Source: JALSIF01 sp026981635 [NCBI: bacterium] (GTDB taxonomy: Bacteria; 4484-113; JALSIF01). Taken from it: DNA of 6,625 bases. The stretch is from NCBI GenBank assembly GCA_026981635.1, contig JALSIF010000011.1:1-6625 (forward strand). Direction: 5' to 3'. Under the pieces are notes generated by a model. It searched no databases and was not told the origin of the DNA. It saw only the letters and a program-made list of their open reading frames with translations. Positions 1 through 5,118 of the stretch are shown here, one piece after another (within the stretch, counting starts at the first letter, position 1; every line of letters starts with the position of its first letter). Both the position numbers and the translations under genes were made by a program.

Positions 1-290
1 GTAGGGGAGAAGCTCTCCGCGCGCACCCCCTGGGCCCTGAGGGCGGCCACCATCAGGCGCACGCTGCGCTCCTCGCCAGAGAGAACCACCTCATAGCTGG
101 CTGGAACAGGGACCTCGCCCCCCACCTCCTCCAGCGCCCGGATCAGCCGGTCGGTCTCGTCGCCCATGGCCGAGACCACCACCGCCACCTGATCCCCCCG
201 GGCGATGCGCTCGGCGATGGCCCGAGCCGCCCGGGCGATGAGCTCCGGGGTGGCGATGGAGGTGCCCCCAAACTTGATCACCCTGCGCAC
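1..290 (-). CDS. lysC: Aspartokinase, N-terminal part (cut by left edge)
   Basis: Aspartate kinase phosphorylates L-aspartate with ATP, the first step toward lysine, threonine, methionine and diaminopimelate. About 96 codons are present. The protein opens with VIKFGGTSI (residues 4-12), the family's N-terminal nucleotide/substrate signature (K-F-G-G-T-S). VVVSAMGDETDRLI follows at residues 37-50, matching the family's VSAMG..TD.L block, and SGEERS (71-76) fits the conserved S-x-G-E region. The rest of the catalytic domain and the C-terminal ACT regulatory domains lie beyond the window. I chose the GTG at 290 because it puts three residues before the VIKFGG strand, as usual in the family, and because a perfect TATAAT lies just upstream with no ribosome binding site. 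The gene is divergent from murG. Family assignment is firm. Which aspartokinase isozyme it is, and so the symbol, cannot be decided from this fragment. Confidence 0.9.
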   Translation of the reverse strand, partial: MRRVIKFGGTSIATPELIARAARAIAERIARGDQVAVVVSAMGDETDRLIRALEEVGGEVPVPASYEVVLSGEERSVRLMVAALRAQGVRAESFSP

Positions 291-299
291 GCTGGCCCG

Positions 300-305
300 A
301 TTATA
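300..305 (-). promoter_or_regulatory. -10 box (TATAAT) of the aspartokinase gene, near-leaderless
   Basis: Read on the minus strand, a consensus TATAAT spans 305 to 300, followed by nine bases and then the GTG at 290. With a normal -10 to start-site distance, the transcript would begin within about three bases of the start codon, leaving no room for a Shine-Dalgarno sequence. I find no good TTGACA-like -35 hexamer at 16-18 bp spacing. This is an inference from sequence position only. Confidence 0.6.
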
Positions 306-342
306 GGCAGCACCCACGCCGCAGACCTTGGCCGGTCGCCCC

Positions 343-348
343 TACAAT
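343..348 (+). promoter_or_regulatory. -10 box (TACAAT) of murG, leaderless
   Basis: TACAAT at 343-348 is followed by seven bases and then the GTG at 356, so transcription would begin at or next to the start codon. The seven bases (CCCTCCG) contain no Shine-Dalgarno match. Together with the TATAAT on the other strand it makes the 65-bp gap between the aspartokinase and murG a compact divergent promoter region. No convincing -35 is visible. The promoter supports 356 as the true murG start rather than the in-frame GTG at 389. Confidence 0.55.
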
Positions 349-355
349 CCCTCCG

Positions 356-1468
356 GTGGCAGCAAGCTCAGGCCCAGCTGGGGAGAGGGTGCGCCTGGCG
401 GTGGCCGGGGGTGCTACCGGCGGCCACACCTTCCCCGCCCTGGCCACGATCAGGGCACTTAGAGACCTCACCGGGGGCAGACTTGCGATCCTCTGGCTGG
501 GCTCAGACCGCTTGGACCGGAAGGTGGCCGAGGAGGAGGGGTTTTTGCATGTGGCGCTTGACTTCTACTTCCAGCGCTGGCGGCCAACCCCTAGCAACCT
601 CCCCGCCATCCTGCGCTTCCTCGGCCAGCTCATCACCCGGCGCCCCTTCCGCCAGGCCGCCGAGGCACTCACCCGCTTTCGGCCCCAGCTTATCCTTTCC
701 ACCGGCGGCTATGTGGCCCTGCCCACCCTGGTGGTGGCCCGAAGGCTGGGCGTCCCCATCCTCCAGCTTGAGCCCAATGCCCTGCCCGGCACGGTAACCA
801 GCCTGTTTGCCCGGCGGGCAGAGCTTACCGTTATTCCTCCCGGTGCGAGGCCGCCCGCCAGGCGGGTCTTTGAGCTTGGGGTGCCGGCCCTGCTCCCCTC
901 CAAGGAGGAGGCGGAGCAGAGCTTTCGCCGCTACTCTCCCTCTGGAAGGCCGCTCATCCTCTTTACTGGCGGAAGCCAGGGAAGCAGGCAGATCAACCGG
1001 TTGGCCGAGAAGCTGGTCCCGGAGCTGGCCGGAAAGTTCTCCATCGTTATCCAGCACGGCAGACAGGAGATCTCGGCGGGTCTGGCTGAGCTTGACGGAG
1101 TAACCCTTATTCCCTTTGAAAAAAACCTCTCTGCCCTCCTTGCCGCCTCTTCGCTGGTTATCTCCCGGGCCGGTGCGGCCACCCTCGCCCTGATTGAGGA
1201 GCTTAGGCTTCCCGCCCTGCTCCTTCCCCTGGGAGGAAGAGGAGGACACCAGTACCACAACGCTGCTCGCCTATTGCGGCTGGGCCACCCGGTGAGGATC
1301 GCAGCGGGTCCCGAGGAGGGAGAGGAAATCCTCGTCTGGATCGACTCCCACCTGCTTGCCTCCCCCGCCTACCAGCTTATGGAGCTTTCCGGCGGCCCCA
1401 ACCGGCCAGCCAGACAGCTCGCAGAGCTGATTCTTGACCTTGCGGGCAGCTCATCCCAAGCCGGTTAG
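356..1468 (+). CDS. murG: MurG-type lipid II synthase (UDP-GlcNAc transferase), divergent
   Basis: MurG transfers GlcNAc from UDP-GlcNAc to lipid I at the inner face of the membrane, giving lipid II for peptidoglycan. The 370-residue product has the usual length and the two-lobed GT-B layout. The N-lobe glycine loop GGATGGH is at 18-24, STGGYVALPT at 115-124 and LEPNALPG at 138-145. The C-lobe has GGSQGS at 205-210, SRAGAATL at 270-277 and the HQYHNA block at 298-303. Two motifs depart from the norm. The usual HEQN is LEPN here, and by hand alignment the glutamate that holds the UDP ribose in E. coli MurG (E269) is Leu279. The GTG start at 356 is chosen because TACAAT ends seven bases upstream; it adds about ten residues before the first strand. 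The gene lies 15 bp before the amidase and not in a visible division/cell-wall cluster. It is a MurG homologue with confidence; that it is the cell's main MurG is inferred. Confidence 0.88.
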   Translation: MAASSGPAGERVRLAVAGGATGGHTFPALATIRALRDLTGGRLAILWLGSDRLDRKVAEEEGFLHVALDFYFQRWRPTPSNLPAILRFLGQLITRRPFRQAAEALTRFRPQLILSTGGYVALPTLVVARRLGVPILQLEPNALPGTVTSLFARRAELTVIPPGARPPARRVFELGVPALLPSKEEAEQSFRRYSPSGRPLILFTGGSQGSRQINRLAEKLVPELAGKFSIVIQHGRQEISAGLAELDGVTLIPFEKNLSALLAASSLVISRAGAATLALIEELRLPALLLPLGGRGGHQYHNAARLLRLGHPVRIAAGPEEGEEILVWIDSHLLASPAYQLMELSGGPNRPARQLAELILDLAGSSSQAG

Positions 1469-1470
1469 GG

Positions 1471-1476
1471 TAAACT
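1471..1476 (+). promoter_or_regulatory. -10-like box (TAAACT) of the amidase gene, leaderless
   Basis: The 15-bp gap between the murG stop codon (1466-1468) and the amidase GTG (1484) contains TAAACT, which fits TANNNT, ending seven bases before the start. The intervening CAACAGC has no Shine-Dalgarno character. A TTGACC exists at 1434-1439 but is 31 bp away, too far to be a normal -35. The amidase may therefore be transcribed separately despite the operon-like spacing. Confidence 0.45.
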
Positions 1477-1483
1477 CAACAGC

Positions 1484-3112
1484 GTGGTCCTGGGCAGGCG
1501 GCAGCTAGGACTTCTACTTTCCTGCACCCTCACGGCCCTTTTGGTGGTGGGTCTGGCCGCTAGCCAGGCCGGGGCATCGGTGGGGGTGGTGGTGGGCGGT
1601 GAGCTGATCCAGTTTGCCGCCCCACCCATCGTGCGCTCGCCGAGCGGCGACTTGCTCATCTCCCGTGCCCTCATTGAGCGCATTTGGGAGCCAGTGGAGG
1701 GCCAGCCCGAGGCGGGCCGGCTGGGCGACCGCCTCTACCGCTTCTTGCCCCAGGGGGACCTTTCCCGAGGGGGGAGGAGCATCGCCCGCCGCCAGCGCCT
1801 GGCAGCCCTCCCCAAAACCGACTTCTACTCGGCAGCCAGCCTCAGGGTGGAGGGGCTGGACATCTTCTTTGACCCACGCCTTGCGGGCTACCGGGTGGTG
1901 GGAACCCTGAGAAGGATCACCCTTGGGGAAGACGGTAGCGTCACCCTGGTGGCGGTGGGTCCCCTGGCCATGCGAAAGATCCCCTCCACCAGCGCCCGAA
2001 AGCTGACCATTGAGCTTCCCGGAATTAGGCCAGCCCCCGAGCTGTTTACCCCCCCGCGCACCGCCTCCGGCATCGCCCTCAGTCTCAGCTACCGGGCGGA
2101 GGACTACACCACCGTGCTCACCTTTGACCTCCCCGCCGACCGCAACGTCCACTTCCTGCGCTCCTCGGGGGGACGGGTGGCAGCCATTGACCTCAGCGAA
2201 CACCTGGAGCTGGCCGGAGTTGAGGCGAGCTACGCGGGCAGCGCCATCTTTACCCTCATCCTGGGCAGCAACCCCGACTACCGGGTCTTTCGCCTCACCG
2301 ATCCGCCCCGGCTGGTGTTTGACTTTCCCGGCGTGCGCATCGCCGGCCCCACCCGCCGGGAGAGACTCTCCCTGGAGAGCGTGCGCGAGGTGAGGGTGGG
2401 GCAGTTTCAGGAGGATCCCCCCATCGCCCGGCTGGTCTTTGAGACCGCCTACCCCCTGCGCTACCGGGTGATCAAGAACTCGGGCGGGGTGTTTAGGGTC
2501 CAGCTCATTGACCCGGCCAAGGCGCGAAGCGAGGGGCTCATCGTGCTTGATGCGGGCCACGGGGGAACCGACACCGGCGCCATCGGCACCCGGGGAACCG
2601 AGGAGAAGGAGATCAACCTGGCCATCGCCCGGCTCACCCAGAAGGACCTGGAGGAGATGGGCTACCAGGTGGTCCAGACCAGGGAGGGGGACTACTTCCT
2701 CAGCCTGCAGGAGAGGGCCGAGCTGGCCAACAAGCTTGCCCCGGTGGCCTTCGTTTCCATCCACTCAAACTCCATCCCCAACCCCGAGACCCAGGGGATC
2801 ATGACCTTCCACCACCCCACGGCAGGGGAGGCCAGGAAGCTTGCCCGCTACATCCAAAGCTCCCTCATTGAGGTGACCAGGGCGGTGGACAAGGGAGTGC
2901 GGACGGCCGACTTCTATGTGCTCAGGGAGACCCTGGTGCCTGCCGTCCTGGTGGAGACCGGCTTTCTCACCAACCCGGAGGAGGAGAGCCGGCTGAGGGA
3001 CCCCAGCTACCAGGCCCTCATCGCCCAGGGCATCGCCCGCGGCATCGCCGCCTGGCTGAGGGAGGTGGAGTTTGAGGACGCCCCCCTGCTGGAGACCCTA
3101 TCCCTCCCCTGA
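1484..3112 (+). CDS. Secreted N-acetylmuramoyl-L-alanine amidase (Amidase_3 with AMIN-like domain)
   Basis: This zinc enzyme cuts the bond between N-acetylmuramic acid and L-alanine in peptidoglycan, acting outside the cytoplasmic membrane in cell separation and wall turnover. The 542-residue product begins with a signal peptide: RR at 5-6, a hydrophobic stretch about 8-25, and a likely cleavage after SQAGA (27-31). A region at about 34-70 (VVVGGELIQF onward) resembles the copper-amine-oxidase-like N-terminal repeat. Beta-rich sequence follows to about 240, then an AMIN-like wall-binding domain at about 246-340. The catalytic domain runs from 351 to about 527: LDAGHGG (355-361, zinc ligand H359), EKE (374-376, ligand E374), SIHSNS (425-430, ligand H427) and VETGFLTN (490-497, catalytic E491). 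All expected active-site residues are present. It follows murG by 15 bp, which fits a cell-wall pairing. The GTG start is supported by TAAACT just upstream. The exact role among AmiA/B/C- or CwlD-like enzymes cannot be set from sequence. Confidence 0.93.
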   Translation: MVLGRRQLGLLLSCTLTALLVVGLAASQAGASVGVVVGGELIQFAAPPIVRSPSGDLLISRALIERIWEPVEGQPEAGRLGDRLYRFLPQGDLSRGGRSIARRQRLAALPKTDFYSAASLRVEGLDIFFDPRLAGYRVVGTLRRITLGEDGSVTLVAVGPLAMRKIPSTSARKLTIELPGIRPAPELFTPPRTASGIALSLSYRAEDYTTVLTFDLPADRNVHFLRSSGGRVAAIDLSEHLELAGVEASYAGSAIFTLILGSNPDYRVFRLTDPPRLVFDFPGVRIAGPTRRERLSLESVREVRVGQFQEDPPIARLVFETAYPLRYRVIKNSGGVFRVQLIDPAKARSEGLIVLDAGHGGTDTGAIGTRGTEEKEINLAIARLTQKDLEEMGYQVVQTREGDYFLSLQERAELANKLAPVAFVSIHSNSIPNPETQGIMTFHHPTAGEARKLARYIQSSLIEVTRAVDKGVRTADFYVLRETLVPAVLVETGFLTNPEEESRLRDPSYQALIAQGIARGIAAWLREVEFEDAPLLETLSLP

Positions 3113-3117
3113 CCCAA

Positions 3118-3123
3118 TAGAAT
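3118..3123 (+). promoter_or_regulatory. -10 box (TAGAAT) of the glycosylase gene, leaderless
   Basis: TAGAAT lies in the 18-bp gap after the amidase stop (TGA, 3110-3112) and ends seven bases before the ATG at 3131. The spacer TGCCCCC cannot pair with the 16S rRNA tail as a Shine-Dalgarno. The same hexamer at nearly the same distance precedes the next gene. Confidence 0.55.
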
Positions 3124-3130
3124 TGCCCCC

Positions 3131-3784
3131 ATGGACCTGGACCGCTTCGTAGATAAGTACCGCCAGCTCAGGGTGGTGGAGGCGGCACGTTTTCTGGTTG
3201 GCCACTGTCTGGTCAGAGACCACCCTGAGCTGGGTGAGGTCCGGGCCCTGATTACCGAAGCGGAGGCCTACCGAGAGGACGATCCGGCCAGCCACTCCTA
3301 CCACGGCCGCACCGCTCGCACCTGGCCCATGTTTGAGCGCCCCGGCATCCTCTATGTCTACCTCTCCTACGGGGTCCACCACTGCATGAACGTAAGCGCC
3401 GAGGAGGAGGGTAGGGGAGCGGCGGTGCTCATCCGGCGGCTGGTGGGACTCCCACCCCATCAGCACCTGCGCATGCTGGGGCCGGGGCTAATCTGTCGCG
3501 CCCTGGCCATTGACCGCTCCATGAACGGGCTTGACCTTTTCGATCCCGCCTCCCCCCTGAGACTCATGCCTAACCCGGAGCGGGAGAAGTTGGCCCCCTA
3601 CATTCAGGTGGGTGAGCGGATCGGGATCAAGGTGGCGGTGGAGAAGCCCTGGCGCTTCTACATAAACCGGGAGCTGGAAAAGGCGCTTCTTACCGGTGGC
3701 CGGCAGGCCGACCTATCACTGCTAGAATCGGCCCGTGGGCAAGCTGGAGAAGCTCAAGGCCAAGGTAGCCAGTCTGGGGCTTAA
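3131..3784 (+). CDS. mpg: DNA-3-methyladenine glycosylase, AAG/MPG type
   Basis: This monofunctional glycosylase removes alkylated and deaminated purines (3-methyladenine, hypoxanthine) from DNA, starting base excision repair. The 217-residue protein carries the whole family core. ITEAEAYRED (41-50) contains the presumed catalytic glutamate, E45, aligned to human E125, and Y47. H55 in DPASHSYHGRT follows. MFERPGILYVYLSYG (67-81) supplies Tyr77 and Tyr80, corresponding to the base-stacking and intercalating tyrosines Y159 and Y162 of human AAG. NV (87-88) comes after HHC, and GPGL (117-120) and PWRFYI (173-178) close the fold. The last 16 codons, a Gly/Gln/Ser/Ala-rich tail, overlap the start of ridA in another frame and go beyond the normal end of the family, so they are probably a non-conserved extension. 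The ATG start agrees with TAGAAT seven bases upstream. It sits between cell-wall and RidA genes, with no other repair gene in view. Confidence 0.93.
   Translation: MDLDRFVDKYRQLRVVEAARFLVGHCLVRDHPELGEVRALITEAEAYREDDPASHSYHGRTARTWPMFERPGILYVYLSYGVHHCMNVSAEEEGRGAAVLIRRLVGLPPHQHLRMLGPGLICRALAIDRSMNGLDLFDPASPLRLMPNPEREKLAPYIQVGERIGIKVAVEKPWRFYINRELEKALLTGGRQADLSLLESARGQAGEAQGQGSQSGA
3723..3728 (+). promoter_or_regulatory. -10 box (TAGAAT) of ridA, inside the glycosylase gene
   Basis: TAGAAT at 3723-3728 ends six bases before the GTG at 3735. It lies within the glycosylase coding region, where it encodes Leu-Glu-Ser at residues 198-200. The spacer CGGCCC is not a Shine-Dalgarno. If real, it lets ridA be transcribed on its own as a leaderless message from within the upstream gene. 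Confidence 0.5.
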
Positions 3785-4211
3785 GTGGCCCCCTCCCCCA
3801 AGGCCGGTGGCCAAGTACGTGACCGCCCGCCACCTCTCGGGCTTGGTCTCGGTCTCCGGTATGGTTCCCATGGTGGATGGAAAGCCCCTCTACACCGGCA
3901 AGGTGGGGCGCGAGGTGACCCTGGAGCAGGCCCAGGAGTGCGCCCGCCAGTGCGTGCTCAACGCCCTCGCCGCCCTGGAGGAGATCCTCCAGCAGGACTT
4001 TGAGGGCCTGATCGGGGCAGTAAAGCTTCGCTGCTACGTAAACGCCACCGATGACTTTACCGACCACTCCAAGGTGGCCGACGGGGCAAGCGAGCTGCTC
4101 GCCGCCCTGCTTGGCTCAAGCGGTCTCCACGCCCGGGTGGCAGTAGGTTGCAGCTCCCTTCCCCTAAACGTTCCGGTGGAGGTGGAGTTTGAGTTCCAGG
4201 TCCAGGTCTAG
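3735..4211 (+). CDS. RidA/YjgF/UK114 family protein
   Basis: RidA-family proteins form trimers. The best-known members hydrolyse reactive enamine/imine intermediates released by PLP enzymes, while many paralogues have other or unknown roles. The 158-residue product is longer than the classic 125-130 residue RidA and matches the longer subfamily. It has an N-terminal LGLKWPPPPRPVAKYV segment (14-29), then VSVSGMVPMVDGKPLYTGKVG (38-58), an AQECARQCVLNALAALEEIL helix (66-85), and HARVAVGCSSLPLNVPVEVEFE (132-153). Arg134 sits where RidA keeps its substrate-carboxylate arginine. The GTG at 3735 is preferred because of TAGAAT just upstream and because it gives the full-length N-terminus. It overlaps the glycosylase gene by 50 nt. 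Its stop codon TAG (4209-4211) shares three bases with the stop of the convergent cheR-like gene. Family assignment is strong, but true enamine deaminase activity is only possible. Confidence 0.88.
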   Translation: MGKLEKLKAKVASLGLKWPPPPRPVAKYVTARHLSGLVSVSGMVPMVDGKPLYTGKVGREVTLEQAQECARQCVLNALAALEEILQQDFEGLIGAVKLRCYVNATDDFTDHSKVADGASELLAALLGSSGLHARVAVGCSSLPLNVPVEVEFEFQVQV

Positions 4212-5065
4212 GGGAGAGCCTCACCGCAGTTGAAGACTCCCCTGACTTCTCCAATCTCCTCAGCTTCAAGGCTATCAAGGTAGCCTGCCTCCTGGGGGGC
4301 GACAATTAAATATCCCCCCAGCATAACCATCCCACACAGCCTCTCCGCCCACTCCCTGGCCCTCTCCCCCCTCAGGTAGTAGAGCCAGTTTCTGGCCATG
4401 ACTAGGTGAAACCGCTGATCCATGGGAGGCTCAGCCAGGAACTCAACAGACCTTTTTAGATCGACACTTACGATTAAATAGCTTTTATCAATTTTAATAT
4501 ATTTATTATAAATATTATCAATCTCATTTATCTTAATCCTTTCATACCTTCCTTCCTGGGCCGATTTTCTGAGGCTCTCAATGGGCTCGTAGGCATAAAT
4601 CTTGTAGCTCCCCCAAGCAAGCACATCAGCCGCCACCATGGCCAGTGACCAGACCTCCTCGCCGGTTGATGAGCCCATGGAAAGAAGCCTAAGTTCCCTA
4701 AACCTTTCCGCCAGCTTGGTCAAACCTTGCTTCCTTAGCCACTCAAACTGCTCCGGGTGGCGGAAGAAGCCGGTCGTGCCGACCAAGAGGATCTCAACCA
4801 GCTTTGACACCGCGTCTTCAATCCGCTGTCGTCTACTTCCCGAAGCTTCTAATAGCCCTTTAAGAACATTCAGGGCCATACCGGCTTCAGGCCTCAGCGA
4901 TAGGCGGTGTACCAGGTAGTCAGGATCAAGGTCGCCAAGTCTGTATCCGGTGATCTCCTCGGCCAGGCGGCAGACCTGCCCAAACCTTCCCCCAAAGATG
5001 GCGTCAAGCCTCCTCTCCGCACCAGCCATGATCAACCCAAGGATAGACCTGCCCAAGATCGCCAA
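4208..5065 (-). CDS. CheR-type SAM-dependent methyltransferase, orphan
   Basis: CheR enzymes methylate glutamates on chemoreceptors using S-adenosylmethionine. Here no other chemotaxis gene is in view, so the target is unknown. The 285-residue product has a helical N-terminal part (about 18-95), then TTGFFRHPEQFEWL (97-110), matching the family's T.FFR...F..L. The SAM-binding signature MGSSTGEEVWSLAM is at 130-143, and YEPIESLRKSAQEGRY (159-174) takes the place of the usual D-x-s...L..A..G.Y, with Glu160 for Asp. VDLKRSVEFL (201-210) and FHLVMARNWLYYL (219-231), equivalent to FDLI.CRN.LIYF, follow. The beta subdomain is short and is encoded by a very AT-rich tract. The start is uncertain: TTG at 5065 is the longest. 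TTG 5056 has GGGAG about ten bases upstream, and ATG 5029 still keeps the conserved domain. It lies 53 bp after comF and may have its own promoter. The lower GC suggests later acquisition. Confidence 0.82.
   Translation of the reverse strand: MAILGRSILGLIMAGAERRLDAIFGGRFGQVCRLAEEITGYRLGDLDPDYLVHRLSLRPEAGMALNVLKGLLEASGSRRQRIEDAVSKLVEILLVGTTGFFRHPEQFEWLRKQGLTKLAERFRELRLLSMGSSTGEEVWSLAMVAADVLAWGSYKIYAYEPIESLRKSAQEGRYERIKINEIDNIYNKYIKIDKSYLIVSVDLKRSVEFLAEPPMDQRFHLVMARNWLYYLRGERAREWAERLCGMVMLGGYLIVAPQEAGYLDSLEAEEIGEVRGVFNCGEALP
4471..4540. other. AT-rich tract inside the cheR-like gene
   Basis: Of these 70 bases, 59 are A or T by hand count, in a window that is otherwise strongly GC-rich. On the coding (minus) strand it encodes residues 176-198, rich in Ile, Asn, Lys, Tyr and Asp. 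18 of its 23 codons also end in A or T, so the bias is not only due to amino-acid choice. It falls on the small beta subdomain of the CheR fold. Confidence 0.85.
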
Positions 5066-5118
5066 TCTCCCAACTTCGCATAATGAATATTATGTTACAT
5101 ATAGTTAGTTGCTCGCCA
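5066..5118 (-). promoter_or_regulatory. AT-rich probable promoter region of the cheR-like gene
   Basis: The 53 bases between the comF stop and the cheR-like TTG are AT-rich. Read on the minus strand they contain several overlapping -10-like hexamers, for example CATAAT (5094-5089) and TAATAT (5092-5087). A GGGAG element at 5071-5067 could serve as a ribosome binding site for the TTG at 5056. No single promoter can be fixed, and no terminator hairpin for comF is evident here. Confidence 0.4.

What the first reader, a model, noticed from the sequence alone, without database searches (positions are those of the whole stretch)
291..3737. Five consecutive gene starts carry a TANNNT box 6-9 nt upstream and no Shine-Dalgarno: leaderless promoters
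Boxes are TATAAT (305-300, minus, 9 nt gap), TACAAT (343-348, 7), TAAACT (1471-1476, 7), TAGAAT (3118-3123, 7) and TAGAAT (3723-3728, 6). Each places the expected transcription start at or within about three bases of the GTG or ATG. If A and T are each about 19% of bases, a TANNNT at one of four allowed offsets should occur at only a few percent of starts, so five of five is not chance. Leaderless genes with a -10 box directly upstream are established in Deinococcota and Actinobacteria. Here even genes 15-18 bp apart keep their own box, which suggests near gene-by-gene transcription instead of long operons. Four of five starts are GTG.
Basis: partly seen in the sequence, partly recalled or inferred. 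Interest (0 to 1): 0.6.

Follow-up and report, generated by a model that had tools for sequence, protein, structure and literature searches.

The report
Promoter boxes abutting start codons
Five neighbouring genes each carry a promoter box a few bases before the start codon, part of a genome-wide habit in this little-sampled bacterial lineage of apparently making messenger RNAs that begin at or just before the coding sequence; the habit is well known elsewhere, but the wider spacing seen here is unusual.

Summary
All five boxes sit as stated, with gaps of 9, 7, 7, 7 and 6 nt and no Shine-Dalgarno (SD) core. In 81 readable of 100 sampled contigs of the parent draft (516 gene starts), TANNNT lies 6-10 nt before 132 starts, against 36 of 3073 internal start codons; shuffles give a mean of 19. 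The box is -10-like (TA-N-A-A-T) without a visible -35. murG keeps a box at its start in 9 of 10 genomes of the phylum.

So: leaderless or near-leaderless -10 promoters, a known kind, in a phylum of ten held species. "Gene-by-gene transcription" is only partly supported: co-directional genes 26-80 nt apart carry a box in 34%, overlapping genes in 2%, 60% of the latter with SD-like sequence.

One departure: the commonest gap here is 9 nt. In pooled relatives it is 6, in Deinococcus radiodurans about 6-7 (PMC12340547). Base patterns weakly suggest transcription starting about 7 nt after the box, hence leaders of 0-4 nt. I had no transcript data.

The parts
300..305 (-). -10 box TATAAT, 9 nt before lysC GTG (290)
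3..290 (-). aspartate kinase (lysC), 3' end cut by the contig end; GTG start 290
   Evidence: Pfam AA_kinase 8.7e-13 (tested from 293); two NCBIfam models align residue 1 with position 1
343..348 (+). -10 box TACAAT, 7 nt before murG GTG (356); divergent from the lysC box, 37 bp between boxes
   Evidence: box at the murG start in 9 of 10 class genomes
356..1468 (+). MurG glycosyltransferase (alternative GTG start at 389)
   Evidence: Pfam Glyco_transf_28 N- and C-domains; TIGR01133 murG, below its cut-off
1471..1476 (+). -10 box TAAACT, 7 nt before amidase GTG (1484)
   Evidence: no box at the amidase starts listed for seven relatives
1484..3112 (+). AMIN-domain N-acetylmuramoyl-L-alanine amidase
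   Evidence: Pfam Amidase_3 5.6e-55, AMIN 8.3e-10
3118..3123 (+). -10 box TAGAAT, 7 nt before ATG 3131
3131..3784 (+). DNA-3-methyladenine glycosylase (AAG/MPG)
   Evidence: Pfam Pur_DNA_glyco 3.2e-47, residues 14-180
3723..3728 (+). -10 box TAGAAT, 6 nt before GTG 3735; lies inside the 3' tail of the glycosylase gene
3735..4211 (+). RidA/YjgF-like protein, overlapping the glycosylase gene by 50 bp
   Evidence: Pfam YjgF_endoribonc 1.8e-12; ORF coordinates

Best explanation
Each box is the -10 element of a housekeeping-type promoter read without a -35 consensus. RNA polymerase most likely starts on the purine about 7 nt after the box, so the mRNA begins at the start codon (gap 6) or 1-4 nt before it (gaps 7-10). 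Ribosomes must then start on an mRNA with no SD, presumably by the 5'-end (70S or initiator-tRNA dependent) route known for leaderless mRNA. The box works as promoter and, through its spacing, sets where the message begins relative to the start codon. Genes overlapping an upstream gene rarely have a box and often carry SD-like sequence, so they look like operon members. Shown: box position, consensus, statistics, conservation at murG, scarcity of SD. Inferred: transcription start, promoter activity, route of translation.
For: Sharp position peak: gaps 6-10 hold 30, 33, 18, 40, 17 of 516 starts, gaps 0-5 and 11-19 hold 1-9 each. 132 of 516 starts against 36 of 3073 internal start codons, Fisher P about 7e-84. 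Seven class relatives pooled: 85 of 536 against 54 of 2428 internal (sums of the rows). No comparable peak for nine other patterns (highest single count 12). Box consensus T-A-N-A(74%)-A(66%)-T with G at 49% two bases before it, and no -35 visible, in 76 boxed starts. At gap 6 the base before the start codon is a pyrimidine in 27 of 29, as expected if the start codon is the transcription start; M. tuberculosis starts prefer a purine after C (PMC3898074, passages). SD-like sequence at 6 of 132 boxed against 166 of 384 unboxed starts; part of this contrast is built in, since the box occupies the SD place. murG keeps a box 6-8 nt before its start (6 or 9 in one genome) in 9 of 10 class genomes, in all four families; the exception, G001, has SD-like sequence instead. 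16S ends in the normal CACCTCCTTT in 2 class genomes. All 10 class genomes match the RpoD C-terminal model at E <= 0.001.
Against: No transcript data. The gene caller is home-made, and 159 of 396 starts in an earlier sample showed neither box nor SD, so some starts are wrong or a third route exists. Counting any nearby start instead of the called one gives a corrected 28% in G000 but 2-19% in five relatives, with E. coli at 9%, Thermus 14% and D. deserti 8% by the same measure; G004 and G009 hardly rose above background. G007 has only 2 of 30 boxed starts. 19 of 100 sampled contigs were wholly N. The parent genome's own 16S was not found.
Confidence: 0.9

Rival explanations
1. The boxes are chance AT-rich hexamers selected by eye.
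Against: Enrichment over internal start codons, shuffles and nine control patterns in a 607-kb sample.
Confidence: 0.01
2. The boxes are -10 elements, but the true start codons lie further downstream, so the genes have ordinary leaders and the reader's and my starts are too far upstream.
For: murG has a good alternative start at 389 with GGAG 3 nt before it. Start calling in GC-rich genomes is error-prone.
Against: Start calls used coding potential only, not the box, yet peak at fixed gaps. In 9 of 10 genomes the murG box precedes a start at, or up to about a dozen codons before, the conserved N-terminus. lysC residue 1 aligns with model position 1. 8 of 20 gap-9 proteins align within 10 residues of their start to position 4 or earlier of a family model.
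Confidence: 0.06
3. The TANNNT hexamer acts in translation, as a non-SD ribosome-binding signal, and is not a promoter.
For: It occupies the place of an SD site; non-SD ribosome-binding sites are reported for Bacteroides and AT-rich ones for its FCB group (PMC9581028, passages).
Against: Consensus equals the -10 hexamer; the box is nearly absent from overlapping genes (1 of 52), where a ribosome-binding signal would be needed most; in D. radiodurans the same motif acts as a promoter (PMC12340547, section 7 and passages).
Confidence: 0.03

Closest known systems
Leaderless genes of Deinococcota with a -10 motif next to the ORF (PMC12340547; PMC3160421)
   Same: TANNNT next to the start codon in about a quarter to a third of genes, SD-type motif at others.
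   Different: Here another phylum; the commonest gap is 9 nt, against about 6-7 bp in D. radiodurans; middle bases of the box are informative (A 74%, A 66%), while PMC3160421 calls them little informative in high-GC groups.
Leaderless transcriptome of Mycobacterium tuberculosis / M. smegmatis (PMC3898074, PMC6448022)
   Same: TANNNT -10; in M. tuberculosis no -35 and starts preferring a purine; about a quarter of genes with a mapped primary start leaderless.
   Different: Those are mapped transcripts; here only sequence. 'Leaderless' there includes leaders up to 5 nt, so 3-4 nt leaders fall inside that working definition.
Bidirectional symmetric -10 promoters (PMC12825309, citing Warman 2021)
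   Same: Two divergent pairs in this genome share one TANNNTA box.
   Different: Here the box lies between two start codons 19 or 21 bp apart, so both mRNAs would be near-leaderless. The window's lysC/murG pair has two separate boxes.

Membership tests
TANNNT-type leaderless gene set (as in Deinococcota and Actinomycetota) | -10-like TANNNT at fixed short distance from many start codons | tested here: met
   132 of 516 against 36 of 3073 internal; no comparable peak for nine control patterns
TANNNT-type leaderless gene set (as in Deinococcota and Actinomycetota) | Distance peak at 6-7 nt | tested here: inconclusive
   Peaks at 6-7 and at 9 in G000 (30, 33, 18, 40, 17 for gaps 6-10); seven pooled relatives peak at 6 (43, 17, 12, 9, 5)
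TANNNT-type leaderless gene set (as in Deinococcota and Actinomycetota) | No SD at boxed genes while SD is used elsewhere | tested here: met
   SD-like at 6 of 132 boxed against 166 of 384 unboxed starts, partly built in since the box takes the SD place; internal start codons have SD-like at 24%; anti-SD CCTCC intact in 2 class genomes; G000's own 16S not found
TANNNT-type leaderless gene set (as in Deinococcota and Actinomycetota) | No -35 consensus | tested here: met
   No conserved -35 in 76 aligned boxed starts; TTG in the -35 zone in 8 of 81 and 4 of 66
TANNNT-type leaderless gene set (as in Deinococcota and Actinomycetota) | Mapped transcription start within 5 nt of the start codon | not testable with these tools
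   needs 5'-end RNA sequencing
Deinococcota or Actinomycetota (taxon) | Genome falls in the phylum | tested here: not met
   A phylum-wide search, up to 60 genomes allowed, covered only ten, all of one class.

The most novel reading that the evidence does not exclude
In this lineage transcription starts a fixed 7 nt after the -10 box while the start codon sits at one of two preferred registers, 0-1 nt or 3-4 nt further on. That would make a class of mRNAs with uniform 3-4 nt micro-leaders, richer in ATG than the truly leaderless GTG class, and its ribosomes would accept a start codon one codon in from the 5' end as a normal site.
Probability: 0.4. Interest if true: 0.55.

Novelty: new member of a known kind. 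Interest (0 to 1): 0.38.

Why it matters
It adds a little-sampled bacterial phylum to those where a large part of the genes appear to be leaderless, outside the groups where this was best described. It gives a practical rule for start annotation in these genomes (look 6-10 nt after TANNNT, not only for SD). The second register at 9-10 nt is a clean, testable prediction about how close to the 5' end a start codon must be: a review says that distance from the 5' end strongly decreases translation of leaderless mRNA in some species (PMC9031893, passages; the E. coli study it cites, Krishnan 2010, I know only by title).

Tried and rejected
Chance: rejected. Deinococcota or Actinomycetota as the host: not supported. 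Strong form of 'gene-by-gene transcription': rejected for overlapping and very close genes. Artefact for the 9-nt gap, a start codon three bases upstream missed by the caller: the codon before is never ATG, GTG or TTG in 21 of 21 early cases, and in the full set of 40 is TTG once and never CTG or ATT. A different -35 or extended -10 for the 9-11 nt class: TG in the extended -10 place in 16 of 66 against 10 of 81 for gaps 6-8, no clear -35 in either; not pursued. Missing principal sigma factor: the best G000 match is the shorter RpoD-type protein (215 bits), while 8 of 9 relatives also show a copy at 298-357 bits; the draft is 85% complete and partly masked, so loss is not claimed. IF3 in G000 matches only model positions 20-85 in a 72-aa open frame, perhaps cut by a contig end (not checked), and 8 of 9 relatives have a longer match; not pursued. 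A search for papers joining 'leaderless', 'candidate phylum', 'promoter' and 'Shine-Dalgarno' found none; that is a narrow search. Positive controls were weaker than hoped: Thermus pTT27 6 of 51, D. deserti plasmids 7 of 76, though both peak at gap 6; E. coli 2 of 40 matches its internal rate, 12 of 216.

Full report
Observation. I read the window and checked each claim. The five hexamers and gaps are exact, and none of the five starts has an SD core within 14 nt. The genes are aspartate kinase (minus strand, cut by the contig end), MurG, an AMIN-domain amidase, a 3-methyladenine DNA glycosylase and a RidA/YjgF-like protein. The last box lies inside the tail of the glycosylase gene: the RidA-like gene begins 50 bp before the glycosylase ends, past the conserved domain, which stops at residue 180 of 217. 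The three other complete gene starts in the window have no clear box.

Chance. Base composition gives 2.5% per start for four offsets. I then took 100 of the 317 contigs of the parent draft. 81 were readable, 607 kb at 63.5% GC. A coding-potential gene caller that ignores the box called 569 genes, 516 with a usable start. TANNNT ends 6-10 nt before 132 of them (25.6%), against 36 of 3073 internal in-frame start codons (1.2%). Shuffling the upstream 30 nt gave a mean of 19 and a maximum of 32 in 300 trials; nine sister patterns (AT...T, TT...T, TA...A and so on) show no comparable peak, the highest single count being 12. A measure that does not depend on the chosen start gives 144 of 396, corrected to 28%.

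What the box is. Seventy-six boxed starts aligned on the box show T-A-N-A(74%)-A(66%)-T, enriched G (49%) and T (34%) where an extended -10 has TG, and no visible -35. SD-like sequence occurs at 6 of 132 boxed starts against 166 of 384 unboxed ones; part of this is built in, because the box occupies the place of an SD site, and internal start codons show SD-like sequence at 24%. Two class genomes have a normal 16S 3' end with CCTCC; G000's own 16S was not found.

Conservation. The phylum holds ten genomes here, all of one class in four families. murG homologues were found in all ten. Nine of ten have a TANNNT box before murG: TACAAT in G000 (gap 7), G002 and G004 (gap 6), TAGACT in G003 and G006 (gap 8), TACACT in G009 (gap 7), TAAGAT in G007 (gap 7) and G005 (gap 6 to TTG or 9 to ATG), TAATAT in G008 (gap 7). 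G001 has SD-like sequence instead. The amidase homologue lies downstream of murG, same contig and strand, in all nine relatives (places); only G000 shows a box there. At the starts listed for seven relatives (first 240 nt of the open frame) I saw none, six of the seven having SD-like sequence at a listed start; for G005 and G006 the script listed no candidate. So the amidase box looks lineage-specific. Over seven sampled relatives boxes precede 85 of 536 starts against 54 of 2428 internal start codons, weakest in G007 (2 of 30).

Operons. In G000 a box marks 59 of 166 divergent starts, 42 of 122 co-directional starts 26-80 nt after the previous gene, 12 of 73 at 0-25 nt, 12 of 78 beyond 80 nt, 1 of 52 overlapping, and 6 of 25 at contig edges; SD-like sequence marks 31 of the 52 overlapping ones. 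In relatives the 26-80 nt class has 9 of 65 (Fisher P 0.003). Close-set genes in G000 therefore often have their own promoter box, but overlapping genes look like ordinary operon members. The window's RidA-like start is the one overlapping exception in the sample.

Spacing. Gaps 6, 7, 8, 9, 10 hold 30, 33, 18, 40, 17 starts in G000 and 43, 17, 12, 9, 5 in seven pooled relatives; gaps 9-10 against 6-8 differ at P = 1e-4. The relatives' samples are smaller and of mixed GC, and G003 also shows some gap 9. At gap 6 the base before the start codon is a pyrimidine in 27 of 29; at gaps 9-10 in 28 of 57 (P = 4e-5); in relatives 37 of 42 and 9 of 14 (P = 0.10) (counts differ slightly because one search takes one box per start). 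At gap 9 position +7 after the box is a purine in 60% and position +6 in 30%, a weak sign that transcription still starts at +7, giving a 3-nt leader. GTG is the start in 20 of 29 at gap 6 and 20 of 57 at gaps 9-10 (P = 0.006); in relatives 23 of 42 and 4 of 14 (P = 0.13). Gap-9 start calls look sound as far as tested: of 34 such proteins listed I scanned 20, and 8 align within ten residues of their start to position 4 or earlier of a family model (LptG/F, TIGR01777, HAD, GlmM-like, NifU, RdgB, glyoxalase, glutamyl/glutaminyl-tRNA synthetase); RuvB is offset by four residues, isochorismatase aligns 11 to 1, and the others are uninformative or suggest a shorter N-terminus than called. One more, the DUF92 protein, aligns 9 to 3. 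The window's lysC is a gap-9 case, with residue 1 on model position 1.

Known ground. Zheng 2011 (PMC3160421, section 7 and passages) found such signals in 207 of 953 bacterial genomes, with TAnnnT in high-GC groups. [quoted passage not shown] In D. radiodurans the motif lies about 6-7 bp from the ORF in nearly a third of genes and acts as a promoter (PMC12340547, section 7 and passages). M. tuberculosis and M. smegmatis studies count starts within 5 nt as leaderless (PMC3898074, PMC6448022, passages). The kind is known; the host lineage and the second spacing register are the additions.

Limits. All of this is sequence inference. No transcript start, promoter activity or translation was measured, and the phylum could not be named.

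Noticed in passing
L114:1756-1780 (G000:C304) and L010:345-367 (G000:C4): One symmetric 7-bp box (TATAATA, TAGACTA) lies between two divergent start codons only 19 and 21 bp apart: RDD-family protein / SpoIIM, and an ORF without Pfam match that runs off the contig / DUF92. Five control palindromes gave no pair with both starts called. The exact spacing of the TATAATA case occurs in none of the nine other class genomes.
   Followed up: partly
G000:C289:7656-8384 (L106): The best RpoD-type sigma in the parent draft is a shorter one (about 307 aa, 215 bits); 8 of 9 class relatives also have a copy scoring 298-357 bits. Draft gap or loss not decided.
   Followed up: partly
window 3735-3784: The RidA-like gene overlaps the 3' end of the glycosylase gene by 50 bp and has its promoter box inside it; the only box among 52 overlapping co-directional starts in the sample.
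   Followed up: partly
window 4450-4545 and 5080-5110: Two AT-rich patches, one inside the CheR-like gene and one upstream of it, stand out in a 63% GC contig; the CheR start is unclear.
   Followed up: no
window 4208-5065: A CheR-type methyltransferase sits between the RidA-like gene and a comF-like gene; none of the nine window proteins scanned matched another chemotaxis family.
   Followed up: no
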